From Streptomyces sp. NBC_00285 (GTDB taxonomy: Bacteria > Actinomycetota > Actinomycetes > Streptomycetales > Streptomycetaceae), in contig NZ_CP108055.1 of the NCBI RefSeq assembly GCF_036174265.1, forward strand, positions 5,952,001 to 6,016,000: a stretch of DNA of 64,000 bases. The letters run 5' to 3'. The notes beneath the pieces are model-generated. The model was given only the letters and a program-made list of their open reading frames with translations. It was not told the DNA's origin and did not search any database. Positions within the stretch are counted from its first letter, which is position 1. Each line of letters opens with the position of its first letter. The position numbers and the translations under genes are program-made. Below are positions 1 to 31,642 of this stretch, piece by piece.

Positions 1-528
1 ACCGCCGGGGACTCGGCGGCCGTCCTGCGCGCTGAGTGGGAGCGGCTGAACGCGGCGAGCGAGGTGCCCGGCACGGTGCCGCTCGGCGCGGTCGTCCCGG
101 AGGAGGTGCGCGGCCCAGCTGTACACCAACGCCCTTGGCTCGCACGCTACTTGACGACGCTGGACGTGCTGCGCGACCTCCAGACGCGGGGGATCACGGA
201 GCCCAGGGTTTCAGGGTTCGGCCACCGGCTCGTCCCCGAACTCGCCGAGGCCGAAGGTGCCTTGTACACCGAGAGGGCTTTGGACGCCGACGACCCCGAG
301 GCGCCGATCCTGTGCTGGACGCCGGAGCGGGCGTACGTCAGGGTCCCGGGCCTCGACCGGACCTTCCAACTCGGCCGCCGGGCGGCGGAGATCACGGAAC
401 TGCTGCTGGTCCTCGGCGCCGACGAAGCCGCGACGCGGCACGCGGACCGGGCCGAGGTCGAGCGGGTCCTCGCGTTCTTCGCCGACAAGGGAGTTTCCCT
501 GGCACGTGTGCTGGAGGCGACCGCATGA
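1..528 (+). CDS. Daptide-type RiPP recognition (RRE) protein, 5' end outside window
   Basis: The reading frame is open from the first base and ends at TGA 526-528, so only the C-terminal ~175 residues are visible. It overlaps the methyltransferase start by ATGA, indicating translational coupling. I assign it by context: in daptide clusters (the mpa cluster of Microbacterium is the prototype) a RiPP-recognition-element protein binds the precursor leader and sits beside the methyltransferase, aminotransferase and dehydrogenase genes, as here. The visible part has no catalytic motif I recognise; it is mixed helix/strand and ends in a helical stretch (AEVERVLAFFADKGV). Function is inferred mainly from its neighbours. 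Confidence 0.6.
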   Translation, partial: TAGDSAAVLRAEWERLNAASEVPGTVPLGAVVPEEVRGPAVHQRPWLARYLTTLDVLRDLQTRGITEPRVSGFGHRLVPELAEAEGALYTERALDADDPEAPILCWTPERAYVRVPGLDRTFQLGRRAAEITELLLVLGADEAATRHADRAEVERVLAFFADKGVSLARVLEATA

Positions 529-1337
529 CGACGACCCGGACCGCGGCGGTCCCGGGCCTCGCCGGCGAGATCCTCGCCGGGTACGGCGACCGAGTCCACG
601 TGCACGACCTGTACGACGAGGCAGGCGCCTCCGTCTATCACGACCTCGCCGCCGCCGACACCAGCGAGATCAGGGAACTGACCCGGGCCGTCCGTGCCGT
701 ACCTGGCCCGGTCCTCGAACTCGCTGCTGGTTCCGGCCGGTTGACGCTTCCCCTGCTCGCGCTGGGCCGTGAGGTCACGGCCCTGGAGCTGAAGGAGAGC
801 ATGGTCGCCCTCCTCAAGGAGCGGCTCGCCGAGGCCCCGGCGGGGATCGGGGGGCGCTGCACCGTGGTCCAGGGAGACATGTCGGCGTTCGCGCTCGGCG
901 GCGCCACCTTCGCCGTCGTCGTCCTCGGTACGACGTCCATCTCGCTGCTCGACGCCGACGGCAGGGCCGGGCTCTACGCGGCCGTCCGCGCCCACCTCCG
1001 GCCCGGCGGCAGGTTCCTGCTCTCCACGGTCGACGTGGACGGCGCCGACGGGGACGACCTCGATCTGGAGGCCGCGGGTGCCAGTGGCCGGCGTTACCGG
1101 ATGATCGAGCACTGGCGGTCCGGCCAGGAGGTTCGCAAGGTCACCATCCTGCCTCCCGAGCGGGAGACACCGCAGGACGGACCGGTACCCGCGTTCACCA
1201 CGGCCATCCGGGTCCTGCCCCCCGACGACCTCACCCGGGAGCTGGCGTCGGCGGGACTGCGCGTCGTCGCGCGGCACACCCTGCCCGCCGCCTCCCCCCG
1301 CCACACCGATGTGCTGCTGGAAGCCGAGGCCGCCTGA
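525..1337 (+). CDS. SAM-dependent methyltransferase of the daptide cluster
   Basis: This 270-residue class I methyltransferase starts at ATG 525, overlapping the previous stop. Motif I is visible at residues 63-72 (VLELAAGSGR), followed by an acidic motif II region (VTALELKES) and a conserved RPGG turn (HLRPGGRFLLST). In the known daptide pathway the methyltransferase dimethylates the new C-terminal amine made by the dehydrogenase and aminotransferase, giving an (S)-N2,N2-dimethyl-1,2-propanediamine end group. Position in the operon and family fit that role; the actual substrate is inferred. It abuts the aminotransferase through an ATGA-type overlap at 1335-1339. Confidence 0.8.
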   Translation: MTTTRTAAVPGLAGEILAGYGDRVHVHDLYDEAGASVYHDLAAADTSEIRELTRAVRAVPGPVLELAAGSGRLTLPLLALGREVTALELKESMVALLKERLAEAPAGIGGRCTVVQGDMSAFALGGATFAVVVLGTTSISLLDADGRAGLYAAVRAHLRPGGRFLLSTVDVDGADGDDLDLEAAGASGRRYRMIEHWRSGQEVRKVTILPPERETPQDGPVPAFTTAIRVLPPDDLTRELASAGLRVVARHTLPAASPRHTDVLLEAEAA

Positions 1338-2596
1338 TGTCCACCGAACTCTGGCCCTCCCTGCTCGAACCCCGTCTGCACGGAGCGGACGACCTGTGCG
1401 CCGTCTCGGCGGACGGCGTCCGCATCCGCTTCCTGGACGGCCGTGAACTGCTCTGCGGCACCAGCGGCCTGTGGAACGCGAACCTCGGCTTCGGCAACGA
1501 GGCCATCGCGGAAGCCTGCGCCGCCGCCCTGCGCGAGGCCTCCTACCTGTCGGTGTTCCGCTACGAGAACGTCTACGCGAGGCGTGCGGCGCGGGCGCTG
1601 GTCGAGGCGGCGGGCGCGGACCACTACGGCCGGGTCGTCTTCTCGACCTCCGGAGGTGCCGCCAACGACCTCGTGATGAAGCTGGCCCGGCACTACCACG
1701 CCCTGCGCGGGGACGGTGCGCGCAAGCTCGTCGTGGGCCTGCGGGACAGCTATCACGGGCTGACGTTCGGCGGGTTCGCGCTCACCGGCGAGAACCTCGG
1801 CCAGTCCGTCTACGGCGTCGACCAGCGGCTCGTCCGCCATGTGTCCCCCAACTCCGTCGAGGAGATCGCCCAGTTGGCGGCCCAGCAGGGCAGCCGGATC
1901 GCGGCGGTCGTGGTGGAGCCGGTGCTCGGCAGCGGGGCGGTGCCCCTCACCCCGGAGTACGTTCAGGCACTGCTCGAACTCCGGGACCGGCACGGCTTCC
2001 TCCTCGTCGCCGACGAGGTCGCCACGGGCTTCGGCCGCACCGGCGACTTCTTCGCCTCCCAGCGCTGGCCGGCCCCGCCGGATCTGCTGATCACGTCGAA
2101 GGGCCTGACCAACGGCACCCACGCCGCGGCGGCCGTCCTGCTGCCCAGGGCGCTCGCCGAACCCTTCGACGCGGCCGGCGACGTGTTCGTCCACGGCGAG
2201 ACCCAGGCCGGAACGCCCGTCACCTGCGCGGCGATCCTCGCCACCGTGGAGGAGATGCGTCGGCTCGACGCGGTCGCCTCCGCGCGGCGCCTGTCGGCCG
2301 TGCTCGACGAGAGGCTGGCGGACCTGGTCGCCACCGAACCGCTGGTCTCGGGCACCACGGGCATCGGCTGCTTCCGGTCCATCCGGCTCAGCACGCCCGG
2401 CGGAGAGCCGCTGCCGCAGCAGGAGGTCCCGCAGGTCGTCGCCGCGATCCGCGAGGCCGGCGCGATCGTCCACCCCAGCGTCAACGGCGTGCAGATCCTT
2501 CCCGCGCTGGTCTACACCGACGACGAGGTCACCGAACTCCTCGACTGCGTGCGGGCCGGGGTGGCCGCGCACGCCCGGCAGCCCGAGGCGGTCTGA
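1337..2596 (+). CDS. PLP-dependent class III aminotransferase (daptide type)
   Basis: This 419-residue protein has full class III (omega) aminotransferase length and architecture. Visible landmarks are the substrate-side GTSGLWNANLGFGNE segment near the N terminus, the PLP-phosphate region STSGGAAND, the DEVATGFGRTG motif that contacts the pyridine nitrogen, and the Schiff-base lysine in TSKGLTNG (Lys255). In daptide biosynthesis this enzyme aminates the ketone left after oxidative decarboxylation of the C-terminal threonine. It starts at ATG 1337, overlapping the methyltransferase stop, and is directly followed by the dehydrogenase at 2597, so the maturation genes are translationally linked. 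Confidence 0.85.
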   Translation: MSTELWPSLLEPRLHGADDLCAVSADGVRIRFLDGRELLCGTSGLWNANLGFGNEAIAEACAAALREASYLSVFRYENVYARRAARALVEAAGADHYGRVVFSTSGGAANDLVMKLARHYHALRGDGARKLVVGLRDSYHGLTFGGFALTGENLGQSVYGVDQRLVRHVSPNSVEEIAQLAAQQGSRIAAVVVEPVLGSGAVPLTPEYVQALLELRDRHGFLLVADEVATGFGRTGDFFASQRWPAPPDLLITSKGLTNGTHAAAAVLLPRALAEPFDAAGDVFVHGETQAGTPVTCAAILATVEEMRRLDAVASARRLSAVLDERLADLVATEPLVSGTTGIGCFRSIRLSTPGGEPLPQQEVPQVVAAIREAGAIVHPSVNGVQILPALVYTDDEVTELLDCVRAGVAAHARQPEAV

Positions 2597-3871
2597 GTGG
2601 ACACGGTGTGGAACCTGAGCGGCCGACGCCCCACCCAGGTGGTGCACGGCATCGGCGGACTGGCCAAGTGGCTGCCCCACCGGAAGGGGCGGACGCTGAC
2701 CCTGCTCGCGGACCCGGCCGTCGCCGAGTCGGAGACGGTGGACCAGATCCTCGCCTGCGCGGCCTGGGCGGGACGGCCGGTGCAGCGGCTCGTACCGAAC
2801 GGCCCCGGCACGCTGGAGAGCGTGACGGCGCTGGCCGAGCGGCTGCGCGACAGTGAACTCGTCGTGGCCGTCGGCGGCGGGACCCTGCTCGACCAGACCA
2901 AGCTGGCCGTCCTGATGAGCTCGGCTCCCGTGGTCCGGGACCGGCTGACGATGCGCGGCCGGAGCGGTCTTGTGCTGCTCCCGGCCGAGGCGGAGCCCGC
3001 GGTGCCCGTCGTCACCGTCCCGACGACCGTCGGCACCGGCAGCGAGCTGAGCGGCGGCGCCTGCCTCGCGGGACCGAGCGGCAAACGCCTGGTGCTCGGC
3101 AATGGGCTCCAGCCGGACGTGGCGGTGCTCGACCCGGTCGCCACCCGGACCCTGCCCGTGGAACTCCTCGCCGAGGGGGTCTTCGAGGTGTTCTTCCGGG
3201 TCGCCGGGATGTACGTGGGGGACCCGCAGGACCTTCCCTCGGAGGACGCCTTCACCCTGACGCTGATCGAGCGGCTGACCGCGCTCGGCGCCGAGCTGGC
3301 GTCCGTCCGGCGGGCCGGCGAAACCCCCGGCGACGCGCTGCGCCTGGAGATCGCCAAGCTCAGCGGCGTGAGCCACGGCCCGTGGTTCAACCAGGGCCGC
3401 GACCCCTGCGCCTGCAAGGGCTGGTACCTCGCCAACGAGCTGTCCACCGGCCTCGGCCTGCGCAAGATGACGGCCGCCGCCGCCGTGCTGCCACCCCTGT
3501 GGCGGCGCATCGCGGAGGGCGATGTCCGCTGGGGGTCCGCACCCCGGCTGCGCCGGCTCTGGCAGGCCGTCACCTCGGTCCACCTGCCGGTCCTGCCGGC
3601 GGACCCGGTCGAGGGGATCGAGTCCCTGCTGGACACCTGGCTGATCGAACGCGGCATCGACGCGAGCGCGGAGCGGACGGAGCTGATCGCCCGGTCCACG
3701 CTGCGCGCATGGGGTGACGGACTGCCCACCCTGGGCGCGCTCACACTCGCCGACATCCGGCGGGTGATGGACCAGGCGGTCCGTCAGCCGCCCACCACAG
3801 ACTTCCGCCGGCCATCGCCGGCGGACGGCCCGAAACACCACGGGAGGGGGGAAACATCATGCAGACCGTGA
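2597..3871 (+). CDS. Alcohol-dehydrogenase-like oxidative decarboxylase (daptide type)
   Basis: This 424-residue protein has the iron-containing alcohol dehydrogenase fold: a VVAVGGGTLLDQTK dinucleotide-binding loop, a TVPTTVGTGSELSG segment and a helical C-terminal domain. In daptide clusters the homologue oxidises and decarboxylates the C-terminal Thr of the precursor to a methyl ketone. The usual metal-ligand positions look altered. The DALxHxxE-type helix reads GVFEVFFRVAG, with Glu197 and Arg201 where Asp and His are expected, and the later His pair is not apparent in GWYLANELSTGLGLRK. Catalysis may therefore not need iron. GTG start directly after the aminotransferase stop; the 3' end overlaps the first precursor gene by 13 nt. 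Confidence 0.78.
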   Translation: MDTVWNLSGRRPTQVVHGIGGLAKWLPHRKGRTLTLLADPAVAESETVDQILACAAWAGRPVQRLVPNGPGTLESVTALAERLRDSELVVAVGGGTLLDQTKLAVLMSSAPVVRDRLTMRGRSGLVLLPAEAEPAVPVVTVPTTVGTGSELSGGACLAGPSGKRLVLGNGLQPDVAVLDPVATRTLPVELLAEGVFEVFFRVAGMYVGDPQDLPSEDAFTLTLIERLTALGAELASVRRAGETPGDALRLEIAKLSGVSHGPWFNQGRDPCACKGWYLANELSTGLGLRKMTAAAAVLPPLWRRIAEGDVRWGSAPRLRRLWQAVTSVHLPVLPADPVEGIESLLDTWLIERGIDASAERTELIARSTLRAWGDGLPTLGALTLADIRRVMDQAVRQPPTTDFRRPSPADGPKHHGRGETSCRP

Positions 3872-4053
3872 ACAGCACCACGTCCGCGCCCCTGGAGCTG
3901 GCTCTCCAGGAGCTGGACCAGCAGCTGGACATGCGGGAACTGGAGGCGCTCGACGCCCCCGACTTCAGCTGGAGCGCCGCTCTCAGCGCAGTCGGCGGCC
4001 TGAGCGCGGGAGGCGTCATCTCGTACGTCTCCATCGTCACGCTCGCCACCTGA
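3859..4053 (+). CDS. Daptide precursor peptide 1
   Basis: A 64-residue peptide with a GGGAGGGGGG ribosome-binding region just upstream. The leader is acidic and helical (LELALQELDQQLDMRELEAL) and ends in an LDAPDF turn. The core is hydrophobic with several Ser/Gly/Ala residues and ends in TLAT. The obligatory C-terminal Thr is the residue converted to the aminated C terminus in daptides. It has no cysteine. It lies immediately after the modifying enzymes, and its leader resembles that of the second precursor. The cleavage site is probably near the APD motif, but this is inferred. Confidence 0.85.
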   Translation: MQTVNSTTSAPLELALQELDQQLDMRELEALDAPDFSWSAALSAVGGLSAGGVISYVSIVTLAT

Positions 4054-4108
4054 GGCACCTGATCCCCGGATCAGAGAGACCCGAGACCCCTTGAAGGAGG
4101 TGAAAGAA

Positions 4109-4285
4109 ATGAAGGAGAACACCAACCCCGCCCTCGAACTGGCCATGCAGGAGCTGTCCATGGAGGAGCTGGAGGGCATGGAGGCGCCTGACTGGTGGGA
4201 CAGCTTCCTCGCCAGCGCCGCCATCTCGGCCGGCGTCAGCGCCGCCTACAGCACCATCGCCGTCACCTCGGTCATCGCGACCTGA
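4109..4285 (+). CDS. Daptide precursor peptide 2
   Basis: A 58-residue peptide. I take ATG 4109 as the start because an excellent AAGGAGGT site lies 7 nt upstream; an in-frame TTG at 4091 would place that site inside the gene. The leader (LELAMQELSMEELEGM) closely parallels precursor 1, then MEAPDWW marks the leader/core boundary. The core is rich in Ala, Ser and Val and ends in VIAT. There is no cysteine. Two related precursors per cluster are normal for daptides, and both should share the same maturation machinery. Confidence 0.87.
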   Translation: MKENTNPALELAMQELSMEELEGMEAPDWWDSFLASAAISAGVSAAYSTIAVTSVIAT

Positions 4286-4309
4286 CGGTGCGATGCCTGA
4301 CGGACAGTG

Positions 4310-4348
4310 CCCTGTTCCGGACGCCGGCCATTGGCGTCCGGAACAGGG
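4310..4348 (+). terminator. Strong hairpin after the precursor genes
   Basis: Perfect 16-bp inverted repeat (arms 4310-4325 and 4333-4348, arm sequence CCCTGTTCCGGACGCC) with a 7-nt loop. There is no U-tract, as is usual for Streptomyces terminators. It lies between the second precursor stop and the ABC transporter genes, so it probably ends or attenuates the precursor transcript and/or protects its 3' end. Confidence 0.75.
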
Positions 4349-4398
4349 CCGCACCGACGAATATACGTGCGGCCCGAAGCCGCAGGGGAGGACGTGGC

Positions 4399-5127
4399 GT
4401 GACCGACGCCATCGACATCACGGGACTCACCAAGCGCTACGGCGAGCTGACGGCCGTCGAGGACGTGTCGTTCACCGTCCGTTCGGGCCGGGTGGTGGGC
4501 CTCCTCGGGCGCAACGGGGCCGGAAAGACGACGACTCTGCGGATGCTGCTGGGGCTCGCGCGCCCGACGGCGGGCAGCGCCACGATCTTCGGCCATCCCT
4601 ACGCACAACTGCCCAAAGCGGCGCACCGGGTGGGCGTCAGCATCGACGGCATCGGCCCCTCCGCCGCCGCCTCCGGCCGCGCCGACCTGCGGATCTGGGC
4701 CCGGACCTGCGGCCTGCCCCGCACGCGGGTGGACGATGTCCTCGAACAGGTGGGACTCGCCTCCGACGCCCACCGCAGACTCCGCGACTACTCACAGGGC
4801 ATGCGGCAGCGGCACGCCCTGGCCACCGCGCTGCTCGCGGACCCCGAACTGCTCATCCTCGACGAACCCGCCAACGGCCTCGACCCCGACGGCATCCGCT
4901 GGCTCCGTGAACTCCTGCGCTCCCTCGCAGACGAGGGCCGCACCGTGCTGGTCTCCAGCCACATCCTGGCGGAGGTCGAGCAGATGGCCGACGACATCGT
5001 CATCCTCCAGAAGACCCTGCGCTACAGCGGCACCGTCGCCGACCTCACGAGGAACGGCGAACTCAGCCTGGAGAGCCGCTTCTTCGACCTGGCCGACCCC
5101 GCCGTGAAGGAGGACGCTCGTGCGTGA
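4399..5127 (+). CDS. ABC transporter ATP-binding protein
   Basis: A 242-residue ATPase of the drug/bacteriocin exporter type. Walker A is GRNGAGKTTT (Lys43), the signature helix is YSQGMRQR (a common variant of LSGGQ in this subfamily), Walker B is LLILDEPANGLDPDG, and the H-loop is VLVSSHIL. The GTG start at 4399 has GGGGAGG upstream. It overlaps the permease gene by 8 nt. With that permease it should form the exporter or self-immunity pump for the mature peptides. Confidence 0.88.
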   Translation: MTDAIDITGLTKRYGELTAVEDVSFTVRSGRVVGLLGRNGAGKTTTLRMLLGLARPTAGSATIFGHPYAQLPKAAHRVGVSIDGIGPSAAASGRADLRIWARTCGLPRTRVDDVLEQVGLASDAHRRLRDYSQGMRQRHALATALLADPELLILDEPANGLDPDGIRWLRELLRSLADEGRTVLVSSHILAEVEQMADDIVILQKTLRYSGTVADLTRNGELSLESRFFDLADPAVKEDARA

Positions 5128-5851
5128 CCTGATCGGAGCCGAGTGGCGCAAGATCTGGACCGGGCGCGCCTGGTGGGCGGTCGCCGCAGCCGCCGTCCTG
5201 ATGTGTGTGATGGCCGACGCCGGGTTCGTCCAGCAGGACAAGGAGGACGTCGGCAGCACCGGGGACATCACCTCCACCCTCGTTCAGGGCTGGTTCATGG
5301 TCGAACTCGCCGCCGCCGTCGTCGCGTTGCTCGCGGTGACCCGGGAGTTCGGGAACGGCGCCATCAGCCGGTCGGTGTTGCTGAGCGGCGGGCGGGCTCG
5401 GCTGCTCACGGCCAAGCTGCTCGCCGTCGTCGGCAGCGGCGCGGTGTTCGCCCTCGCGGCCGGGGCGCTGGCCGCCGTCAGCCCGTGGCTGTTCCTCGCC
5501 GGGCACGACCGGCAGCCGGAGTGGACGGCGACCACGACGTGGACGCTGCTCGGGGTGATGCTGACCATCGTGGTCGGCGCCGTGTGGGGGGCGCTGCTCG
5601 GGTTGCTGATCCGGCAGCAGGTCGCCTCGATCCTCGTCCTGCTGGTCAGCACCTGGCTGGTCGGCGAGGGCCTGCTGCGGCTCGTCCCGGCGATCGGCAG
5701 GCTCACCATCGACGAAGCCATGGCGTCCGTGTACCGGGGCGGCAACGAGAACCTGCTGCCGATCCCGTGGGCCCTGCTGGTGCTCGCGGTGTGGATCGGC
5801 GCGGGCACGGTCGTCGCCCGGACCCTGTTCCTGCGCCGGGACCTTCCGTGA
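5120..5851 (+). CDS. ABC-2 type transporter permease
   Basis: A 243-residue membrane protein with about six hydrophobic helices, beginning with WWAVAAAAVLMCVMADAGFV near residue 18 and ending with a helix before FLRRDLP. The TREFGNGAISRSVLLSG segment is typical of ABC-2 permeases (the coupling helix region after TM2). It starts at GTG 5120 inside the ATPase gene and overlaps the protease gene by 4 nt, so ATPase, permease and protease are translationally coupled. Partner of the 4399-5127 ATPase. Confidence 0.85.
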   Translation: MRDLIGAEWRKIWTGRAWWAVAAAAVLMCVMADAGFVQQDKEDVGSTGDITSTLVQGWFMVELAAAVVALLAVTREFGNGAISRSVLLSGGRARLLTAKLLAVVGSGAVFALAAGALAAVSPWLFLAGHDRQPEWTATTTWTLLGVMLTIVVGAVWGALLGLLIRQQVASILVLLVSTWLVGEGLLRLVPAIGRLTIDEAMASVYRGGNENLLPIPWALLVLAVWIGAGTVVARTLFLRRDLP

Positions 5852-7503
5852 GAACGGCCCTGAAGCGGCGCCAGGAGGAGAAGCCCCCGGCACCGCTGCC
5901 CGAGCGTCCCCGCCTGGCGCCGGACGCCCGGGTCCACGAGCCGATCGAGGACGGCGCCCCCTGGCTCGTCCAGTCCGGCGCGCAGCGCTACCTGCGGGTG
6001 GCCGCCGGGATGGCGAGCCTCCTGCGGCTGGCCGACGGCACCCGTGACGCCGAGGACCTGGCGGAGGAGCTGGGCTGGTCGGTCGAGCTGGTCGGCGAGG
6101 GGCTGCTGCGCGCTCAGCGCACGGGGCTTCTCGAAGACGCGGCCGACAAGCCGCGCAAGGAGCGCCGGATCACGTTCGTCCCGCCGCTCACCGTCCAGCT
6201 CACCGTGGTCCGCCCGGAACGCATGCTGAACGTGTTCCGCCCGCTCACCGCCCGCCTCGCGCACCGGGGTTGGGCGATCGTGGCCGCGACCCTCGCCGGG
6301 GCGGGGCTGCTGTCGCTCGTCGCCCAGGCACAGACGACGATCGCCGCCCTGTCCGAGCCGATCTCCCTGCCGGCGCTGCTCGCGCTGCTCGTCGTCACCT
6401 ACTGCGGCACCATGCTCCACGAGTTGTCGCACGGCCTGGTCCTGAGCCACTACGGCGGCCGGCCCAGCCGTATGGGCTTCATGCTCTTCTACCTGACGCC
6501 CGCGTTCTTCTGCGACGTCTCCGACGGCTGGCGGCTGCCGAGGAACCGGCAGCGGGTAAGGGTCGCGCTTGCCGGGATCGCCACCCAGACGGTCATCGCC
6601 GGTCTCGCGGGCGTCGGTTCGGTGGTCGTGGCGGTGGCGGGGGGAAACCCCGCCGTGCGTGACTTCCTGCTGCTCCTCACGGTCACCAACTACGCCTCCG
6701 GCCTCTTCAACACCATCCCGTTCGTCAAGCTCGACGGCTACCTGGCGCTGATGAGCCACCTCGACATCTCCCACCTGCGGGACCGGTCCATCACGGACGC
6801 CCGCCGCCTCGTCGCCCGGCTGCTGTTCGGCGGGCGGTACGAGCGGGAGCTGCCCGGCGTCGAGTGGGCGCCCCTGTTCGGGCTGGCCTGCATGCTGTTC
6901 CCGCTGTATGTCGTCAGCATGGCCTTCACGCTGTGGGGGTCGGTTCTGGAGAGCGCGGGGATGGTGGGTGCGGTCCTCGTCTCCGTCGCGCTCGGGTATC
7001 TGTCGCTGCGTGTGTACGTCGGCGTCCTCAAGCTGCTTGCGGAGGCGCGGACGGCGGAGGCGGTCGGGTGGCGGCGGGTGACCGTCTCCGTGGCGGCGGT
7101 CGGGGTGGTGGCGGCGGCGCTGCTGGGGATCTCCGTGCCGTACACCGTGACCGGCGGGTTCGTGGAGGAGCGGGGGCGGACGGTCCTTGTGGCGACCGGG
7201 ACGACCGACCGGGACGCCATTGAGCCCGGCGCCGATGTGAAGTTGCAGAGTGGCGGGGTTGTTCTCCAGAAGCAGCTCGGTACGGCCGCGGTCGCGTCCG
7301 GCGACTTCGTGGACCTGTCGGTGCCGTTCTCCGCGTTCGTCCCCGTGACCGGGCTCGACTCGCTGAAGGTGCCGGTCGCCGGGGTCGTCCTCGACGGTGG
7401 GCGGCTCGCGCCGGGGACAACTGGCCAGGCTGTGGTGGACGCGGGTGAGCGGAGCCTCGGTGACTGGCTGTACCTGAAGTACGTGGCGCCGTTCTGGCGC
7501 TGA
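5848..7503 (+). CDS. M50-like intramembrane metalloprotease of the daptide cluster
   Basis: A 551-residue protein starting at GTG 5848, overlapping the permease stop. The N terminus (about residues 20-110) looks like a small PqqD/winged-helix-like cytosolic domain. Multiple TM segments follow, with the zinc motif HELSH at residues 191-195 and the third-ligand motif NTIPFVKLDGY (Asp296). The C-terminal part holds further TM helices and an extracytoplasmic beta-rich tail. Site-2-type proteases are a conserved member of daptide clusters and are the best candidate for leader removal during export; this role is inferred from the family and position. Confidence 0.82.
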   Translation: MRTALKRRQEEKPPAPLPERPRLAPDARVHEPIEDGAPWLVQSGAQRYLRVAAGMASLLRLADGTRDAEDLAEELGWSVELVGEGLLRAQRTGLLEDAADKPRKERRITFVPPLTVQLTVVRPERMLNVFRPLTARLAHRGWAIVAATLAGAGLLSLVAQAQTTIAALSEPISLPALLALLVVTYCGTMLHELSHGLVLSHYGGRPSRMGFMLFYLTPAFFCDVSDGWRLPRNRQRVRVALAGIATQTVIAGLAGVGSVVVAVAGGNPAVRDFLLLLTVTNYASGLFNTIPFVKLDGYLALMSHLDISHLRDRSITDARRLVARLLFGGRYERELPGVEWAPLFGLACMLFPLYVVSMAFTLWGSVLESAGMVGAVLVSVALGYLSLRVYVGVLKLLAEARTAEAVGWRRVTVSVAAVGVVAAALLGISVPYTVTGGFVEERGRTVLVATGTTDRDAIEPGADVKLQSGGVVLQKQLGTAAVASGDFVDLSVPFSAFVPVTGLDSLKVPVAGVVLDGGRLAPGTTGQAVVDAGERSLGDWLYLKYVAPFWR

Positions 7504-7548
7504 CGCCGACCTCTGAACTCCCGTACTCCCGAAAGCGGTTGACCTGTT

Positions 7549-10203
7549 ATGGATGCGTATCGGCGTGTGATGTTCCTGGCGCCCGGCACCCCCTTCTTCG
7601 ACCGGACCGAGGCCGACACCTCCGACCCGGACGACGACTTCCTCGCTTCCGCGCCGCCCGCCGACTGGTCCTGCAACACCGGCACCGACTGGACGATGCT
7701 CACCCCGCACGGCTGTCAACTGCCCGCGCAGGGCTGGAAAGTCCACGTGTCGGCGACGTCGGAGAACGCGCGGAGCGTCCTCGCCCGGTCCTGGGAGTGG
7801 CTGGTCGAGCAGCGCATGGCGTTCAAGTTCATCCGCAGCAGGCAGGTGCTGTTGCGCCGCAACGGCAAGTACGGGGACCGGGGGGCCAGCGGTAAGTTCA
7901 TCACCGTCTATCCCGAGGACGAGACGCGCCTGGCTCTCGTTCTGGATGAACTGGGCGAGATCCTCGACGGCGAGCGCGGGCCCTACATCCTCAGCGACCT
8001 GCGGTGGCGTTCCGGTCCGCTCTACGTGCGGTACGGCGGGTTCGTCGCGCGCATGATGAAGACGGCGAACGGGGAGAGCGTTCCCTGTATCGAGGACCCC
8101 GAGGGTCGGCCGGTACCGGACGTGCGCGGGCCTTCCTTCCGGCCCCCGGAGTGGGCGACGATTCCCGACTGCCTGGCGGAGGCGCTGGAGGCGCGCAACG
8201 CGGGGACGCTGCACGACTTCCCCTACCGCGCCGAGCGTGCCCTGCACTTCTCCAACGGTGGGGGCGTGTACCGGGGGACCGACACGCGTACCGGTGCGCC
8301 CGTCCTGCTGCGGGAGGCGCGACCGCTCGCCGGCATCGACACGCATGGCGAGGACGCCGTCGCCCGGCTCCAGCGCGAGCGGGACTGCCTGGAGCGGCTC
8401 GCCGGACTTCCCTGGGCACCTCGCCTGATCGAGGCTCGGGTGGGGCACGAACACCACTTCCTCGTCCGGGAGTTCGTGGAGGGGGAGACGCTCGCGGTGC
8501 GGACGACTCGGGACAACCCGGCGTCTCCGGAGGCCGATGTGGAGCGGACGGCGGCGTACACACGGTGGGCTGTCGACGTCCTCGACCAGATCGACCAGGG
8601 CGTGCGGGCCATGCACGAACGGGGTGTGGTCTTCGGCGACCTCCATCCCGGCAACGTCATGGTCCGCCCTGACGACTCCGTCGCGTTCATCGACCTGGAG
8701 ACGGCGTCGACGGACTTCACGGCCCGCCAGATCCACGCGGCGCCGGGATTTGCCGCGCCCCCTACGTACCGGGGCACGGCGATCGACCGGTACGCACTGG
8801 GGTGCCTCCGGATCGCCCTGTTCACACCGCTGACCAGTCTGTTGGCGTGGGGTCCCGAGAAGCTGGATCAGCTGATCGAGCTGATCGAGTCGCGGTATCC
8901 GGTGCCGGGGGACTTCGGGGAGAAGGTGCGCGCGGATCTGGGCGCGGGTGTGGCGGGCGCGGTTTCCGAGGGGGAGACCGCGAGGGGCGACGGGGATCCG
9001 GGGACGGGTCTGGTGGGCGCGGTTTCCGAGGGGGGCGGTGCGAAGGCCCGCGTCGACCTCGGCGTCGGCGCGCAGGACCCGGCGCCCGGCGAGAGGCCCA
9101 CGGCCCCGGTCGGCACCGGCAGGCTCGCCACGGTCGCCGGCGCCGGCGCCGGCGCTCTCGCGTCAGCCGTCGGCACCGATGCCCTCGCCACGGCCGTCGG
9201 CATCCTCTCCACCGCCACCCCCACCCGCCAAGACCGCCTCTACCCCGGCGACACCGCCCAGTTCATCCTCCGGGAGGGCGGCACCTGCCTCGCATACGGA
9301 GCTGCCGGAGTCCTCTGGACCCTCGCCGAGACGGGGACGGAGATTCCCGCCGAGCACGTCGACTGGCTGGCGGAGTCCGCGCGCCGGACCACCGACCCGT
9401 CCCCCGGCCTCTACACCGGCACGTCCGGTGTCGCCTGCGTCCTCCACCACCTCGGCCGCACCGACACCGCGGCGGCCCTCCTGAAGGAGGCTTCCGCGGC
9501 GGAACCCGCGAACGACACCCTCCTCGACGGCCGTGCCGGACTCGCCCTCGCCCACCTGTACTTCGCGCGCGCCACCGGCGACGACAATGCCCTCAAGCAG
9601 GCCACCCTCCTCGCGGAACAACTCGTCGAGAGCGCGGCGACCCGTCCGCCCCGGCGAGGCGAGGCCGGTCTGCTGCGCGGCAGGGCCGGCACTGCGCTGC
9701 TCCTGCTGCGCCTGCACGCCCACACCCCCGACGCCGGCCTCCTCGACGCCGCCCACGACCTCCTGGACGCCGATCTGCGCGCCCTCGGCTGGACGGACGA
9801 CGGCTGGACGGCGGGCTCCGCCGGCACGCGTCCCACGTTCGCGGCGGGCAGCGGCGGCACCGCCACGGTCCTGCGGGAGTACCTCGGCCGGCGCCCCGAG
9901 TCGCAGTACGAGTCGGCCTGCGGGACCGTCCTGCGGTCGGCCCTGGACTGCGTCCCTCACACCGTGGGCCTCTTCCATGGCTTCGCGGGCGTCCTCCTGA
10001 CGGCCACCCGGCTGGCCGGACCGGCGCAGGCCGCCGCAGTCGAGCGCTACGCCGCCACGGCCCGCCTCTACGAGGTCCCGCACGAGGGTGCTCCCGCGTA
10101 CCTGGGCCTGGAGAACGTCCGCCTGACGACGGACCTGGCGACGGGGGCGGCGGGCGTGCTGCTGGCGCGAAACGCTGATGCGGACAGGCTGGCGTTCCTG
10201 TGA
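7549..10203 (+). CDS. LanKC-type class III lanthipeptide synthetase (kinase-cyclase)
   Basis: An 884-residue protein with three parts. The N-terminal lyase-like domain (about 1-220) contains FKFIRSRQVLLRRNGKYGDRG. The Ser/Thr kinase domain (about 225-460) has the catalytic loop GDLHPGN (Asp364, Asn369) and a FIDLE magnesium motif (Asp382). The LanC-like cyclase (about 560-884) has repeated GxxG motifs and FHGFAG (His810), without the zinc-binding Cys of class I/IV cyclases. Such enzymes phosphorylate and eliminate Ser/Thr and may cyclise with Cys. Only 45 nt separates it from the protease gene, yet the two nearby precursors have no Cys. A low-complexity linker (residues ~461-555) carries a duplicated segment. 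Confidence 0.88.
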   Translation: MDAYRRVMFLAPGTPFFDRTEADTSDPDDDFLASAPPADWSCNTGTDWTMLTPHGCQLPAQGWKVHVSATSENARSVLARSWEWLVEQRMAFKFIRSRQVLLRRNGKYGDRGASGKFITVYPEDETRLALVLDELGEILDGERGPYILSDLRWRSGPLYVRYGGFVARMMKTANGESVPCIEDPEGRPVPDVRGPSFRPPEWATIPDCLAEALEARNAGTLHDFPYRAERALHFSNGGGVYRGTDTRTGAPVLLREARPLAGIDTHGEDAVARLQRERDCLERLAGLPWAPRLIEARVGHEHHFLVREFVEGETLAVRTTRDNPASPEADVERTAAYTRWAVDVLDQIDQGVRAMHERGVVFGDLHPGNVMVRPDDSVAFIDLETASTDFTARQIHAAPGFAAPPTYRGTAIDRYALGCLRIALFTPLTSLLAWGPEKLDQLIELIESRYPVPGDFGEKVRADLGAGVAGAVSEGETARGDGDPGTGLVGAVSEGGGAKARVDLGVGAQDPAPGERPTAPVGTGRLATVAGAGAGALASAVGTDALATAVGILSTATPTRQDRLYPGDTAQFILREGGTCLAYGAAGVLWTLAETGTEIPAEHVDWLAESARRTTDPSPGLYTGTSGVACVLHHLGRTDTAAALLKEASAAEPANDTLLDGRAGLALAHLYFARATGDDNALKQATLLAEQLVESAATRPPRRGEAGLLRGRAGTALLLLRLHAHTPDAGLLDAAHDLLDADLRALGWTDDGWTAGSAGTRPTFAAGSGGTATVLREYLGRRPESQYESACGTVLRSALDCVPHTVGLFHGFAGVLLTATRLAGPAQAAAVERYAATARLYEVPHEGAPAYLGLENVRLTTDLATGAAGVLLARNADADRLAFL
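8932..9034 (+). repeat. Imperfect direct repeat inside the LanKC linker
   Basis: A ~43-nt segment at 8932-8974 recurs with a few changes at 8992-9034, a 60-nt (20-codon) period, encoding AGVAGAVSEGE and TGLVGAVSEGG. It keeps the frame and lies between the kinase and cyclase domains, so it looks like a recent in-frame expansion of a flexible linker. Confidence 0.7.
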
Positions 10204-11285
10204 ACGACGTTGTGGCGCCGCTGTTTTCGGTGATCTGCCCGACCTACAACCGATCGGCGAAGATCACCGAAACCATCGACTCCGTCCGCGCCCAGACCCT
10301 CCAGGCCTGGGAACTGCTCGTCCTCTCCGACGGTTCCGACGACGACACCGACGACTGGGTACTGCGTGCTGCGCACCAGGACCCCCGCGTCCGACTCCAC
10401 CGCGTCGAGCGCAGCGGCCACCCCAGCGGCCCCCGCAACGCCGGACTCGCCCTGGCCCGAGGCGAGTTCATCGCCTACCTCGACCACGACGACCTCTGGC
10501 GCCCCGGCCACCTCAAGGCCCTGCTCGGCATGTTGCGGGCGGGCGCGGACTTCGCGGTGACGGGCTGCACCTACCACGACGCGGACGGCGCGGAAGCCGC
10601 CGAGTTCGCCCCGCTGTCTGCCTTCTGGCACCCCCAACTCCAGTTGCTGGGGCCGATGTTCGAGCCGTCGAGGGCGGCACACCGGCGCGGTGTCGTGGAG
10701 CGGGTCGGGGGCTGGCGCGGCGGCGTCGGCCTGGAGGACTGGGACCTGTGGCTGCGGGTGGCCGACGCGGGGTACACGTTCCGGACCGTCGTCGAACCGA
10801 CCGCGGCCCTTCTGATGGACGTCGGCACCCGTAGGAACCGGATGCCGCGCCCCCACCGTCTGCCCCTGGTCGTGCTCGACGACGCGCGAACAGCCCACGG
10901 GCTGCTGCGTGAACTCCGGTCCGGCCGGCACGACGAGTCGTTCCGCGCGGCCGTGTCGGCGGACATGAGGGACTGGTACCGGCGGATGGACGACTCCGGC
11001 GCGCTGGTCCGCCCCCTCGACTGGAACGGGGACCTCGACGACGAGATCCGGCGCGTGGTCTCCGGCGAGGTGAAGCTCTTCGAGGAACTCGTGCTGGTCC
11101 CGGACCGGGGCCGGTACGCCCTCGCCCGCAACCTCCTCTGCTCCCGCACCGAACACGCCCACCGGGCCGCTCGGTTGGTGCCCTCGGTCCAGCCGCGTGT
11201 GCTGCGGCTGGTGAGGGACCTGGCCGAGGACGGGCCCGGCGGGCGAACCGGGAGTTCAGATCAGGCCCAACTCCTTGGCCCTTAG
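10200..11285 (+). CDS. Family 2 glycosyltransferase
   Basis: A 361-residue GT-A-fold glycosyltransferase. The N terminus has FSVICPTYNRSAKITETIDS and LVLSDGSDDDT (nucleotide binding), then PRNAGLALARGEFIAYLDHDD, where the Asp cluster is the DXD-type metal site. GLEDWDLWLRVADAGY is the usual acceptor-side ED motif. GTG start at 10200 overlaps the LanKC stop (GTGA), so it is co-translated with the cluster. Either a tailoring glycosylation of the peptide or an unrelated envelope role is possible; the overlap favours the former. The 3' end overlaps the convergent regulator gene by 30 nt. Confidence 0.8.
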   Translation: MNDVVAPLFSVICPTYNRSAKITETIDSVRAQTLQAWELLVLSDGSDDDTDDWVLRAAHQDPRVRLHRVERSGHPSGPRNAGLALARGEFIAYLDHDDLWRPGHLKALLGMLRAGADFAVTGCTYHDADGAEAAEFAPLSAFWHPQLQLLGPMFEPSRAAHRRGVVERVGGWRGGVGLEDWDLWLRVADAGYTFRTVVEPTAALLMDVGTRRNRMPRPHRLPLVVLDDARTAHGLLRELRSGRHDESFRAAVSADMRDWYRRMDDSGALVRPLDWNGDLDDEIRRVVSGEVKLFEELVLVPDRGRYALARNLLCSRTEHAHRAARLVPSVQPRVLRLVRDLAEDGPGGRTGSSDQAQLLGP

Positions 11286-12068
11286 AGCCGCTTGAAAGCG
11301 GGTGGTGGCCTGGAGGCGTCTCAGCAGCTCCGCGACCCGCCCCCGGTAGGTGCGGACGGAGATGCCGAGTTCACGCGCGCCGACCTCGTCCTTGTCGGCG
11401 CGCGACATGGCTTGGAGCACCTTCAGATGCGTGCCGTCCAGCAGGACGGGATCGAGCAGCGTCGAGGCGTCCAGCGCCTTCGACCAGCAGAGGTCGAAGA
11501 ACGACAACAGGACCTCGGCCCGCGCCCCCTGCTCCACGAGCGCCCCGCCCGGTGCGGTGTCCCGCTCCGCCTGGACGAGGGCGGTCTCCCGGTCGGCGAT
11601 CAGCACCCGCTGGAACTCGCCGTCGAGGAGGCGGACCTGTGCGCCGTACCGGATCAGCTCGGCGAAGAGCGCGGCTGTCGCCTCGTTCTCCAGGGCCCGT
11701 CTCTGGAGCAGGACCTTCATCGCCACCCCGCGCCGCAGGCAGGTCAGGCCTACGCGGCGCGCGGTGAGGATCGCCTCCGGTGTCAGGGTCCGTTCCGGCT
11801 GCATCGTCAGGACTTCGCGCCGGGCCTGGGACGTGAGGTCCACGGCCCAGTCGCACATGCTCCTGTCGTCTTCCTGGGGCTCTCCGGTGGGATGCCGCAG
11901 GAGGGACTGGCGGATCAGCGAGTAGCCGAACGACAGGATTTCCTGCTGTTCCGCATGCAGTTTCCTGAGCCGCTGGTCCAGCAGTCGTCCGACGCTTTCG
12001 ATGTCCTCGCCGGTTTCCGGTTGTTCCGAATGTTCTGGCAAAAGCGTTTGGTGCACGGAGACACTCAA
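11256..12068 (-). CDS. Helix-turn-helix transcriptional regulator (LuxR/TrmB-like)
   Basis: A 270-residue protein with a helical N terminus, a central domain (about residues 70-190, ALENEATAALFAELIRYGAQVRLLDGEFQRVLIADRETALV) resembling the phospholipase-D-like sensor of TrmB/LuxR-type actinobacterial regulators, and a C-terminal HTH (about 215-265, ELGISVRTYRGRVAELLRRL). The start is taken as TTG 12068 with GGGGGG eight nt upstream; an in-frame GTG five codons later is the alternative. Convergent with the glycosyltransferase, so it may control the RiPP cluster, but no operator was identified. Confidence 0.7.
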   Translation of the reverse strand: MSVSVHQTLLPEHSEQPETGEDIESVGRLLDQRLRKLHAEQQEILSFGYSLIRQSLLRHPTGEPQEDDRSMCDWAVDLTSQARREVLTMQPERTLTPEAILTARRVGLTCLRRGVAMKVLLQRRALENEATAALFAELIRYGAQVRLLDGEFQRVLIADRETALVQAERDTAPGGALVEQGARAEVLLSFFDLCWSKALDASTLLDPVLLDGTHLKVLQAMSRADKDEVGARELGISVRTYRGRVAELLRRLQATTRFQAALRAKELGLI

Positions 12069-12091
12069 GGCTGTTTCCCCCCGTGAATGTC

Positions 12092-13862: not shown

Positions 13863-14005
13863 TTTGTTTTCTTGACCTTGGAATGTGTGTGCTGAGGGCT
13901 TCTTGACGCCATGCGTGGACCGAGGTGATCGGCTCGGACGTCTGCCGAAGGCGCGTGAGCGTCGATACGATCGACCGGTCGCGGACGGAAAGAGTCGACG
14001 CCAGC

Positions 14006-19184: not shown

Positions 19185-20855
19185 TCAGGTGACCGTGACC
19201 CTGATCGTGTGCCAGCCGGTCGCCCCGTCGGGAAGTGGCTTGTGTCCGCGTCCTGATTGCGGTCGGCCGGTGTTGTCGGTGGCGCGTACCTGTAGCCGGT
19301 GCTTGCCGGGCGTCGCCTGCCACGGCCAGCTCCACTGCCGCCATGTGTCCGCCGAGGGCACCGCGGCGAGCTGTGCCCGCTGCCATGGTCCGTCGTCCAC
19401 GCGGACTTCCACCGCGGACACCCCACGATGCTGCGCCCACGCGACCCCGGCCACCATCGCCGGCCCCCGTGCGAGCCGCCTGCCCGCGGTCGGTGTGTCG
19501 ATCCGTGACTGTGTCTTCACCGGAGCCTGTTCCGCGTAACCCCGGCGTACCCAATAGGCGCTGAAGTCCGAGAAACGGCTCAGCTCCAGCTCCGTCAGCC
19601 ACTTCGTCGCCGACACGTACCCGAACAGCCCTGGTACCACCATCCGTACCGGAAACCCGTGCTCGACCGGCAGCGGCTCCCCGTTCATCCCGACCGCCAG
19701 CAGTGCGTCCCGCCCGTCGCGCAGCGCGGCCATCGGCGTACCGGCCGTGTACCCGTCCACAGAACGGCTCACCAGCTGGTCCGCTCCGTCGTCCGGCTCG
19801 ACTTCGGCCAGCAGATCCCTGATCGGTACTCCCAGCCACCGCGCGTTGCCGACCAACTGGCCACCGACCTCATTCGACACACACGTGAGCGTGATGTACC
19901 GCTCCACCATCGGCATCGCCAGCAACTGGTCGTACGTCAACGTCAGCGGCCGTTTCACCCGGCCATGAATGCTCAGCTGCCAGTCCTTCGGTTCCATCTG
20001 TGGCACCGACAGAGCGGTGTCGATCCGGTAGAAGTCCGCGTTCCTGGTCACGAACGGCTTCACTCCGGGGACACCGGCGGAGACCTTGGCGGGCAAGGGC
20101 GGTGCCGGACTCGCCGGGGGCGGAAGAACCACCGCGGCCCTTGCCGCCGCCACCCGCTGGGCCCAGAGCCGGCGTCCGCCCGGTACCGCCACCGCGGCCG
20201 CACCGATCGCCCCCACCGCCAGCGCGAGAAACCGTCGCCGGCCCGCCGGCTGTCCCGCGCCGGCCCCCCCAGGCGTAGCGGCACTGGGCACGGGGGCGTC
20301 GGCTCCGTATGCCGCCGCGTCCAGGGCCTGGGGGCCGGTGTCGGCCCCGATGCCCTGCGCCGATCCGGCCGCGGGGCGGGGCAGGGTGCGACGAAGCAGC
20401 ACCAGAAGGCCGGCAGCGGCCAGGGCACCGACCACTGACGGCAGGGGGTACGCCCAGGTGGCGCCGGCACGGGTGGCCGACGCGAGTACGCCGACGATCC
20501 CGAACAGGGCGACACCGGCCAGCCCGTACCGGAGCCGGCGCATGGCCAGCACGCCGACGAACGCGGCGAAAGCCGCCAGCACCAGCACGATTCCCGCCTG
20601 CAGCGCCAGCTTGTCGTAGGTGTAGAACACCGTGACCGCGAACTCCTTGACCGGAGTCGGCGCCGCGTCCACGGCGACGCCCCCCACCGCCACGAGCGGC
20701 GCGGAGGGCCCGCCTGTCGCGGCTGCCACCAGCTCGCCGACGCCCAGGGCGAGCGCGGTGGCCGCGACGCCGGCAAGCTCGCCGTACCACTGCTTGAGCG
20801 GCCTTTCCGATGTCGGCAGACCTGTTTTCTGAGCTTCGATGCCGTTGCTGGACAA
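19185..20855 (-). CDS. Membrane-anchored sulfite-oxidase-like molybdopterin oxidoreductase
   Basis: A ~556-residue protein. About four TM helices occupy residues 15-155, followed by a twin-arginine-like RRRFLALAVGAIGAAAV segment. The oxidoreductase molybdopterin domain follows (PLTLTYDQLLAMP, then LTCVSNEVGGQLVGNARWLGVP with the Mo-ligand Cys). A C-terminal dimerisation domain contains GVAWAQHRGVSAVEVRVDDGPWQ. It resembles the YedY/sulfite oxidase family; substrate unknown. I take TTG 20855 as start, just after the small membrane gene whose stop is at 20867-20869, because no ATG or GTG lies upstream in the conserved region; the start is uncertain. Confidence 0.8.
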   Translation of the reverse strand: MSSNGIEAQKTGLPTSERPLKQWYGELAGVAATALALGVGELVAAATGGPSAPLVAVGGVAVDAAPTPVKEFAVTVFYTYDKLALQAGIVLVLAAFAAFVGVLAMRRLRYGLAGVALFGIVGVLASATRAGATWAYPLPSVVGALAAAGLLVLLRRTLPRPAAGSAQGIGADTGPQALDAAAYGADAPVPSAATPGGAGAGQPAGRRRFLALAVGAIGAAAVAVPGGRRLWAQRVAAARAAVVLPPPASPAPPLPAKVSAGVPGVKPFVTRNADFYRIDTALSVPQMEPKDWQLSIHGRVKRPLTLTYDQLLAMPMVERYITLTCVSNEVGGQLVGNARWLGVPIRDLLAEVEPDDGADQLVSRSVDGYTAGTPMAALRDGRDALLAVGMNGEPLPVEHGFPVRMVVPGLFGYVSATKWLTELELSRFSDFSAYWVRRGYAEQAPVKTQSRIDTPTAGRRLARGPAMVAGVAWAQHRGVSAVEVRVDDGPWQRAQLAAVPSADTWRQWSWPWQATPGKHRLQVRATDNTGRPQSGRGHKPLPDGATGWHTIRVTVT

Positions 20856-27901: not shown

Positions 27902-28215
27902 GGGCCGGGGCGACTGACCAGCCAAAACATGAGACACGGACGCATGGGTTGCTGCTGTTTCTGCGACAGAGAACGCTTCCGCGAGTAGTGGCTCATGCAC
28001 ACAGATGGAATGCCGCCGCGAACTCTCTCCATCGGTTGAGGTCGGCAGTTGTGTGCGTCGCTGCTGGTGCCAGGCATCCTTTGGCGTAGACGGCCTTGAA
28101 CGAGCTCCCTCCTGAAAGCGCCGAGAGTACTTGTCATTTGACTGACAGAGAGCAGCCGTCCGCCATAGGATCCGATCGGCGGACCGAAACAAGGAAATGG
28201 TGAGATCGGGGGAAA

Positions 28216-29034: not shown

Positions 29035-29060
29035 CAGAACTCGCTTGGAAGAGGTGAAAA

Positions 29061-29669
<609 letters not shown>

Positions 29670-29693
29670 AGGTGACTATAGGGGGTCTCTTTA

Positions 29694-31517: not shown

Positions 31518-31642
31518 GGGAATTTCTCTTGTTGCGAAGGGGAGTCATAAAGAGGGGCGGCGTGCGGTCCACGAATCCGTGATACTCAACCGTGCCGGTC
31601 GCTGTGCGACCCAACCGGAAACGCTGTTGGTTGGCACACTGA

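What the first reader, a model, noticed from the sequence alone, without database searches (positions are those of the whole stretch)
1..11285. Daptide gene cluster fused to a class III lanthipeptide synthetase
The conserved daptide set (recognition protein, methyltransferase, aminotransferase, dehydrogenase, two Thr-ended precursors, ABC pair, M50 protease) continues without a gap of more than 110 nt into a LanKC gene. The LanKC gene overlaps a glycosyltransferase. This predicts a hybrid peptide with an aminated C terminus and dehydrated Ser/Thr, possibly glycosylated. Whether such hybrids have been described I cannot check.
Basis: partly seen in the sequence, partly recalled or inferred. Interest (0 to 1): 0.85.

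Follow-up and report, generated by a model that had tools for sequence, protein, structure and literature searches.

The report
Daptide cluster with three extra enzymes
This is a Streptomyces gene cluster for a small modified peptide (a daptide) that also carries the enzymes turning serine into D-alanine, a combination already published, plus a sugar-attaching enzyme that, judging by which relatives carry it, probably decorates a tyrosine of the peptide.

Summary
In detail: window 1-11285 is a tightly packed daptide operon (DapB, DapM, aminotransferase, dehydrogenase, two Thr-ended precursors, ABC pair, protease) running into a full-length LanKC and a GT2 glycosyltransferase. LanKC with LanJ in a daptide cluster is published; in the sca cluster five Ser became Ala, with D-Ala shown (Ren et al. 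2023, PMC10036551). So the expected product is a Cys-free, D-Ala-bearing, C-terminally dimethylaminated daptide, neither a lanthipeptide nor a Dha/Dhb peptide. Comparison agrees: of 66 counted clusters, 53 of 54 LanKC+ have LanJ and 0 of 12 LanKC- do; core Ser is 17% against 3%. The less explained part is the glycosyltransferase. All 29 counted clusters with this GT encode a core Tyr, against 8 of 37 without it, which suggests Tyr O-glycosylation; independent evolutionary contrasts are few and not significant. Verdict: real, new member of a known kind, with a testable prediction of the GT target.

The parts
1..528 (+). 3' part of dapB (daptide RiPP recognition protein); full gene begins 566 nt before the window; LanJ gene lies just upstream at -1539..-559 of the same contig (L003:10461-11441)
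   Evidence: NF041823 164 bits on the fragment, 404 bits on the whole gene; LanJ: PF00296 119 bits, TIGR03564 F420-dependent LLM oxidoreductase 131.5 bits, under its cut-off of 234
525..1337 (+). dapM, daptide methyltransferase (N,N-dimethylation of the C-terminal amine)
   Evidence: NF041820 320 bits, cut-off 175
1337..2596 (+). daptide aminotransferase (mpaD in RefSeq naming)
   Evidence: NF041821 653 bits, cut-off 450
2597..3871 (+). daptide dehydrogenase / oxidative decarboxylase (mpaC in RefSeq naming)
   Evidence: NF041822 492 bits, cut-off 300
3859..4053 (+). precursor A1, core DFSWSAALSAVGGLSAGGVISYVSIVTLAT (6 Ser, 1 Tyr, 0 Cys, C-terminal Thr)
   Evidence: NF041808 28.6 bits, cut-off 25; ELEALDAP leader motif; conserved in relatives
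4109..4285 (+). precursor A2, core DWWDSFLASAAISAGVSAAYSTIAVTSVIAT (6 Ser, 1 Tyr, 0 Cys, C-terminal Thr)
   Evidence: NF041808 26.6 bits, cut-off 25 (given from 4106); ELEGMEAP leader motif; ATG start and GGAGG upstream read from the sequence
4399..5127 (+). ABC transporter ATPase
   Evidence: PF00005 97.5 bits (on the longer frame from 4195)
5120..5851 (+). ABC transporter permease
   Evidence: PF12730 37 bits
5848..7503 (+). dapP, RRE-fused intramembrane metalloprotease (leader removal)
   Evidence: NF041824 491 bits, cut-off 300 (on the longer frame from 5143); start by the 4 nt overlap with the permease
7549..10203 (+). LanKC: RamC-type lyase, kinase and LanC-like domains; expected to dehydrate core Ser
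   Evidence: NF038151 839 bits over 4-831 of 833, cut-off 575; PF25816, PF00069, PF05147; kinase motif GDLHPGN at 363
10200..11285 (+). GT2 glycosyltransferase, last gene of the operon; proposed Tyr O-glycosyltransferase
   Evidence: PF00535 100 bits; AlphaFold2 pLDDT 92.4, fold matches to GT2 enzymes; co-occurs with core Tyr in 29 of 29 counted clusters

Best explanation
A tailored daptide pathway. (1) DapB and the protease's RRE bind the ELExxEAP leaders (inferred from homologues). (2) LanKC phosphorylates and eliminates core Ser to Dha, and LanJ reduces Dha to D-Ala (inferred; Ser to D-Ala is printed for the sca cluster; about 0.9). (3) Dehydrogenase, aminotransferase and DapM turn the C-terminal Thr into the dimethylated amine Dmp (about 0.95). 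(4) The GT2 enzyme adds a sugar to the Tyr 7-13 residues before the C terminus, Tyr22 of A1 and Tyr20 of A2 (inferred from covariation only; about 0.6). (5) DapP cuts after the leader Pro and the ABC pair exports two hydrophobic, D-Ala-rich, probably glycosylated peptides.
For: Family hits for all core enzymes. Order J-B-M-AT-DH-A1-A2-T1-T2-P-KC-GT conserved in relatives. LanJ in 53 of 54 LanKC+ clusters and 0 of 12 LanKC-; the one LanKC+ without it, L085, has a zinc-binding alcohol dehydrogenase gene near its LanKC-like gene. Core Ser fraction 0.169 (range 0.090-0.316) in 54 LanKC+ against 0.032 (0-0.076) in 12 LanKC-, no overlap. No Cys in 182 cores. GT with core Tyr 29 of 29, against 8 of 37 without GT, Fisher 1.5e-11; next best residue Asp 4.4e-3. 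Within LanKC+: 25 of 25 against 3 of 29, 2.0e-12; Asp 14 of 25 against 1 of 29, 2.4e-5. The link holds when the GT gene lies divergent upstream of LanJ (L015, L035, L050, L056, L058, L087) and when LanKC/LanJ are absent (L068, L074, L079, L080). In 171 genomes searched with the GT (in one search only 15 candidates per genome were scored) 11 had a match at E <= 1e-25, all beside daptide genes: ten within daptide loci I had fetched, the eleventh (G889) next to a daptide protease gene.
Against: Relatedness: GT changes at least 8 times on the aminotransferase tree, but only 3 independent pairs rest on well-supported branches; any Tyr followed in 1.9 of 3 on average, Tyr in the 7-13 range in 2.5 of 3, neither ever opposed; this cannot reach significance (one quick tree with warnings on long branches). 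Eight GT- clusters have a Tyr; L051 has it at the GT+ position with no GT homologue in about 43 kb. Asp also tracks the GT, more weakly, and GT+ cores are longer (31 against 23 residues), so something else may differ. Clusters met after the idea was formed, 8 in all: 3 of 3 GT+ have Tyr and 1 of 5 GT- has it, p 0.14 alone. The 7-13 range was set after seeing the data. No sugar-supply gene was recognised in the operon. No chemistry was measured.
Confidence: 0.6

Rival explanations
1. Same LanKC/LanJ daptide pathway, but the GT glycosylates a Ser or Thr that escapes dehydration, or the N-terminal Trp (as in NAI-112).
For: Glycocin glycosyltransferases act on Cys/Ser/Thr and AplG on Trp (stated in PMC8068269, passage read). 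Ser, Thr and Trp are in both window cores.
Against: Trp is in cores of all 66 clusters, Ser in 28 of 29 GT+ and 35 of 37 GT-, Thr (before the last residue) in 29 of 29 and 34 of 37: no enrichment with the GT. GT+ clusters without LanKC have almost no Ser (0-0.031). A target present everywhere is not excluded by this.
Confidence: 0.15
2. The GT does not act on the peptide but modifies the envelope or a lipid carrier for self-protection.
For: Nearest solved structures include polysaccharide and teichoic-acid GT2 enzymes such as TarP, RmlT, chondroitin polymerase.
Against: GT tracks a feature of the precursor core, Tyr (29 of 29), is last gene of the biosynthetic operon overlapping LanKC by 4 nt, and its 11 finds in 171 genomes were all beside daptide genes.
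Confidence: 0.1
3. GT and Tyr go together only by common descent; the GT has some other peptide target and Tyr merely marks a lineage.
For: Few independent contrasts: 3 supported pairs, sign test not significant. Core length and Asp go with the GT as well. L051 keeps Tyr without the GT.
Against: Contrasts in far lineages agree: L068 (GT, Tyr) beside L069 (neither), support 80; L067/L046/L047 (both) beside L073 (neither), support 91 but flagged by the tool as a meeting of long branches.
Confidence: 0.13
4. LanKC belongs to a separate class III lanthipeptide pathway lying next to the daptide cluster by chance.
For: LanKC is a full-length class III synthetase by model score.
Against: LanKC kept with daptide genes in 54 of 66 clusters, Ser-rich cores only where LanKC is present, no space for another precursor beside LanKC in the window, no convincing one near LanKC in relatives, and a published cluster of the same kind whose daptide has Ser converted to Ala.
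Confidence: 0.02

Closest known systems
sca daptide cluster of Streptomyces capuensis (Ren et al. 2023, PMC10036551; sections 6 and 7 and passages read)
   Same: Daptide core enzymes plus LanKC/LanJC; product with (S)-Dmp and five Ser converted to Ala, D-Ala present.
   Different: The passages read mention no glycosyltransferase in sca; here a GT2 ends the operon. Gene order of sca was not seen (supplements not readable here).
tfDap cluster of Thermobifida fusca (Dommaraju et al. 2025, PMC12338566; abstract and passages read)
   Same: Daptide enzymes with TfDapKC and TfDapJ. L071 encodes the printed TfDapA1 sequence.
   Different: Has a YcaO; no Tyr in its five cores and no GT seen in the partial locus L071; the window has a GT and two Tyr-bearing cores.
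Cacaoidin, class V lanthipeptide (PMC8068269; passages read)
   Same: A RiPP with D-amino acids, an F420-type LanJ proposed for them, and an O-glycosylated Tyr; GT2 enzymes proposed for attaching the first sugar.
   Different: Lanthionine-bearing, other precursor, rhamnose genes in the cluster; no daptide C terminus.
NAI-112 (class III lanthipeptide) and glycocins (as described in PMC8068269)
   Same: Glycosylated RiPPs; NAI-112 is a class III lanthipeptide with a GT.
   Different: Sugar on Trp, or on Cys/Ser/Thr; no daptide enzymes.
AvpGT, PglI-named GT2 (PDB 9jma)
   Same: Closest solved sequence and first Foldseek match to the GT, 32% identity over about 210 columns.
   Different: Different acceptor; only about 200 of 361 residues align.

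Membership tests
Daptide gene cluster | DapB, DapM, aminotransferase, dehydrogenase and RRE-protease homologues | tested here: met
   All five over NCBIfam curated cut-offs
Daptide gene cluster | Precursors with ELExMEAP-type leader and invariant C-terminal Thr | tested here: met
   A1 ELEALDAP, A2 ELEGMEAP, both end in Thr; NF041808 just over cut-off
Daptide gene cluster | C-terminal Thr converted to Dmp | not testable with these tools
   needs mass spectrometry
Class III synthetase (LanKC) | lyase, kinase and LanC-like domains in one protein | tested here: met
   NF038151 839 bits over 4-831 of 833; PF25816, PF00069, PF05147
Class III synthetase (LanKC) | LanC-like domain without zinc ligands (recalled; ligand motif CHG recalled) | tested here: inconclusive
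   FHGFAG at 809 in place of CHG; other ligand positions not aligned
Lanthipeptide (the product) | Cys in the core to form lanthionine or labionin | tested here: not met
   0 Cys in both window cores and in all 182 cores of the set
LanJC, F420-dependent Dha reductase | luciferase-like LLM family member paired with a Lan dehydratase | tested here: met
   PF00296 119 bits; paired with LanKC in 53 of 54 LanKC+ clusters
LanJC, F420-dependent Dha reductase | member of the MSMEG_4879 (TIGR03564) family as LxmJ and Cao12 | tested here: inconclusive
   best NCBIfam hit is TIGR03564 but 131.5 bits, under its 234 cut-off
LanJC, F420-dependent Dha reductase | reduces Dha to D-Ala | not testable with these tools
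   D-Ala shown in print for the sca product (PMC10036551), not for this cluster
RiPP Tyr O-glycosyltransferase | GT2 domain with acidic metal-binding motif (motif meaning recalled) | tested here: met
RiPP Tyr O-glycosyltransferase | acceptor Tyr present in the substrate | tested here: met
   29 of 29 counted GT+ clusters; correlation only
RiPP Tyr O-glycosyltransferase | transfer of sugar to Tyr | not testable with these tools
   needs enzyme assay or MS/MS

The most novel reading that the evidence does not exclude
A daptide-specific GT2 family makes Tyr-O-glycosylated daptides: in this cluster a peptide carrying at once a C-terminal dimethylamine, about six D-Ala from Ser and a sugar on a mid-core Tyr. 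The same GT works with or without LanKC/LanJ.
Probability: 0.55. Interest if true: 0.55.

Novelty: new member of a known kind. Interest (0 to 1): 0.4.

Why it matters
The daptide-LanKC/LanJ combination is known, so the cluster itself is expected. What it adds is a concrete, cheap-to-test assignment for the glycosyltransferases that the daptide survey listed without, in the passages I read, naming a target. If true, it gives a further RiPP class besides cacaoidin's with O-glycosyl-Tyr, a compact GT2 that takes a hydrophobic leader-guided peptide, and a rule (Tyr in the core) that predicts which daptide clusters make glycopeptides. The clean Ser contrast between LanKC+ and LanKC- clusters also gives comparative support for Ser conversion across the class.

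Tried and rejected
Rejected: chance adjacency of LanKC (54 of 66 clusters keep it); the idea that LanKC works without LanJ here (LanJ found just upstream); a further operon gene at 11292-12086 on the + strand (mismatch pattern points to a convergent minus-strand gene); Trp or Ser/Thr as better-supported GT targets (no enrichment with GT).

Led nowhere: search for a GT near the exceptions. For L051, tblastn with the GT finds nothing but one 26-bit match at E 0.14 in about 43 kb (L051, L091, L092), and Pfam on 8 chosen frames of the many listed shows regulators and metabolic enzymes, no GT. L089 has rmlA-like and sugar-dehydratase genes beside its LanJ; tblastn finds no GT2 homologue in L089, L097, L098, and a GT of another family was not excluded. 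Later draws: searches gave no new cluster, one search gave five new matches. Literature: 12 papers hold 'daptide' (8 listed); I opened two of them. Two hold 'daptide' and 'glycosyl': Ren et al., passages read, and PMC13117576, seen as a listing only. Two hold 'daptides' and 'LanKC': Ren et al. and PMC11002830, listing only. A full-text search for glycosylated, RiPP and 'tyrosine O-glycosylation' together found none. In what I saw no target of a daptide glycosyltransferase is assigned; most subscription papers are not in that library and supplements were not readable here.

Counts: 75 distinct clusters: 68 (6 duplicates removed there at over 99% aminotransferase identity; L049 had no aminotransferase; L021-L023 were left out as aminotransferase-only matches) plus 7 (not put through the duplicate filter). 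Nine were dropped before the counts: L008, L011, L019, L036, L042, L061, L071 (cut by a contig end), L077, L078 (no precursor recognised); of these L036 and L071 have LanKC without a visible LanJ because the contig ends there. L084 (cut by the record start) and L090 (no aminotransferase match, no precursor) were not entered. Dehydrogenase matches not fetched: three of G734, two of G889, G911, G998; G889 bears the GT (L100) but no precursor was recognised in its 3.5 kb. H1, H5 and H6 were not fetched. L085 was first entered as LanKC- and corrected to LanKC+ because one search shows a 30% LanKC match of 226 bits; before the correction the LanKC+ figures were 25 of 25 against 3 of 28, Asp 1.9e-6. 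Precursors of L080 were found only with a looser pattern on a longer fetch (L093). Much of the printed output was cut from view.
Full report
WHAT IS THERE. The window starts inside a daptide operon on the + strand of a 10.3 Mb genome (Streptomyces by its nearest named relatives). NCBIfam equivalog models recognise DapB, DapM, the aminotransferase, the dehydrogenase and the RRE-fused protease, all over their curated cut-offs. Two precursors, A1 (3859-4053) and A2 (4109-4285), have the leader motif and end in Thr, and both match the daptide precursor model just over its cut-off. An ABC pair, the protease, LanKC (839 bits, cut-off 575) and a GT2 glycosyltransferase follow. Seven of 11 junctions overlap by 1-13 nt; the largest gap is 113 nt.

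WHAT THE WINDOW HIDES. The 12 kb before the window shows that DapB overlaps by 8 nt a 326-residue luciferase-like protein (PF00296, 119 bits; best NCBIfam hit the F420-dependent TIGR03564 family, under its cut-off). I read this as the LanJ partner. After the GT, the next gene most likely runs the other way and ends inside the GT gene: mismatches to L007 and L016 peak at plus-frame codon position 1 (78/252 and 83/252), which by my reckoning is position 3 of the minus-strand frame, whereas the GT itself shows the normal plus-strand pattern. The operon is therefore lanJ-dapB-dapM-aminotransferase-dehydrogenase-A1-A2-T1-T2-P-lanKC-GT.

HOW COMMON IT IS. One scan of genome contigs, family searches for the daptide dehydrogenase and plasmid matches gave 75 distinct clusters, 66 of them complete enough to count (the dropped ones are listed under Tried and rejected). 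LanKC is in 54 of 66. LanJ is in 53 of these 54 and in none of the 12 without LanKC; the exception, an Actinomyces oris plasmid (L085), has a zinc-binding alcohol dehydrogenase gene near its LanKC-like gene, and zinc-dependent LanJA reductases are a known kind (PMC8068269). Ser makes up 16.9% of core residues (range 9.0-31.6%) with LanKC and 3.2% (0-7.6%) without, with no overlap. No core has Cys (0 of 182). Together with the sca precedent these say that LanKC and LanJ act on the daptide cores and that the outcome is Ala, not lanthionine.

WHAT IS PRINTED. Ren et al. 2023 (PMC10036551; [quoted passage not shown] Dommaraju et al. 2025 (PMC12338566; abstract and passages read) study tfDap, which has DapKC and DapJ, and rebuild the C-terminal chemistry in vitro; 'glycos' does not occur in its main text. 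Annotated plasmid records already label lanKC within such clusters.

GT AND TYR. All 29 counted GT+ clusters have a Tyr in at least one core; 8 of 37 GT- clusters do (Fisher 1.5e-11; the next residue, Asp, 4.4e-3). Among 54 LanKC+ clusters it is 25 of 25 against 3 of 29 for Tyr, and 14 of 25 against 1 of 29 for Asp (2.4e-5). Counted as Tyr 7-13 residues before the end, a range set after seeing the data, it is 25 of 25 against 1 of 29. Per core in LanKC+ clusters, 45 of 54 distinct cores carry Tyr with the GT and 3 of 79 without. In the 12 LanKC- clusters alone the link is not significant: 4 of 4 against 5 of 8 for any Tyr, 4 of 4 against 2 of 8 for the 7-13 range (p 0.49 and 0.06). The link survives a moved GT gene (divergent, upstream of LanJ). 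The eight exceptions are L017, L018, L059, L075, L076 (no LanKC), L062 (Tyr is core residue 1), L089 (Tyr near the end) and L051 (Tyr as in GT+ cores; no GT found in about 43 kb).

HOW STRONG IT IS. Clusters are related. On a quick aminotransferase tree GT changes at least 8 times, but only 3 independent pairs lie on well-supported branches; Tyr in the 7-13 range went the same way in 2.5 of 3 on average (any Tyr 1.9 of 3) and never the other way, which cannot be significant. Among the 8 clusters met after the idea was formed the pattern is 3 of 3 and 1 of 5 (p 0.14). GT+ cores are also longer, 31 against 23 residues on average. So Tyr as the target is likely, not shown. Cacaoidin is the precedent for O-glycosyl-Tyr in a RiPP with D-residues (PMC8068269, passages read).

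MECHANISM. LanKC activates and dehydrates Ser, LanJ reduces to D-Ala; the dehydrogenase with DapB decarboxylates the C-terminal Thr (shown for tfDap), the aminotransferase and DapM make Dmp; the GT glycosylates Tyr; DapP cuts after Pro and the ABC pair exports. For this cluster every step beyond gene content is inferred from homologues. The order of LanKC/LanJ and GT action is unknown; GT+ clusters without LanKC suggest that the GT does not need D-Ala.

VERDICT. The Tyr-glycosylation prediction is the part worth testing.

Noticed in passing
L051 (cluster on the reverse strand), cores GWWTGIGVSAGVVVASAAGYGSYVASAAIIAT: A LanKC/LanJ cluster with GT-type Tyr-bearing cores but no GT homologue in about 43 kb around it: recent loss, an unlinked GT, or a counter-example.
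   Followed up: partly
L089:14582-16647: rmlA-like thymidylyltransferase and a sugar dehydratase gene divergent from LanJ in a Tyr-bearing daptide cluster that also has a YcaO gene and no GT2 homologue found.
   Followed up: partly
L085:2850-6703: Actinomyces oris plasmid daptide cluster with a weak LanKC-like protein (30%) and a zinc-binding alcohol dehydrogenase gene; no luciferase-like LanJ was matched.
   Followed up: no
L082:8516-8707, L083:8657-8953, L084:8737-9039: Small secreted-looking protein with an NWD/NDW-type end just upstream of LanJ, with relatives in 8 other daptide loci, all without the GT.
   Followed up: no
L035:2811-3845 and 19320-19898: A daptide locus with two members of the GT2 family, one divergent and one cut by the locus end; a possible disaccharide.
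   Followed up: no
window 28001-32000: G+C falls to about 55% in a window of about 70%, with a GAF-domain protein and a 607-residue frame without Pfam match: possibly a foreign island.
   Followed up: no
window 13925-16876: Large LuxR-type ATPase regulator (AAA_16 plus GerE) 2.6 kb after the operon; whether it controls the cluster is unknown.
   Followed up: no
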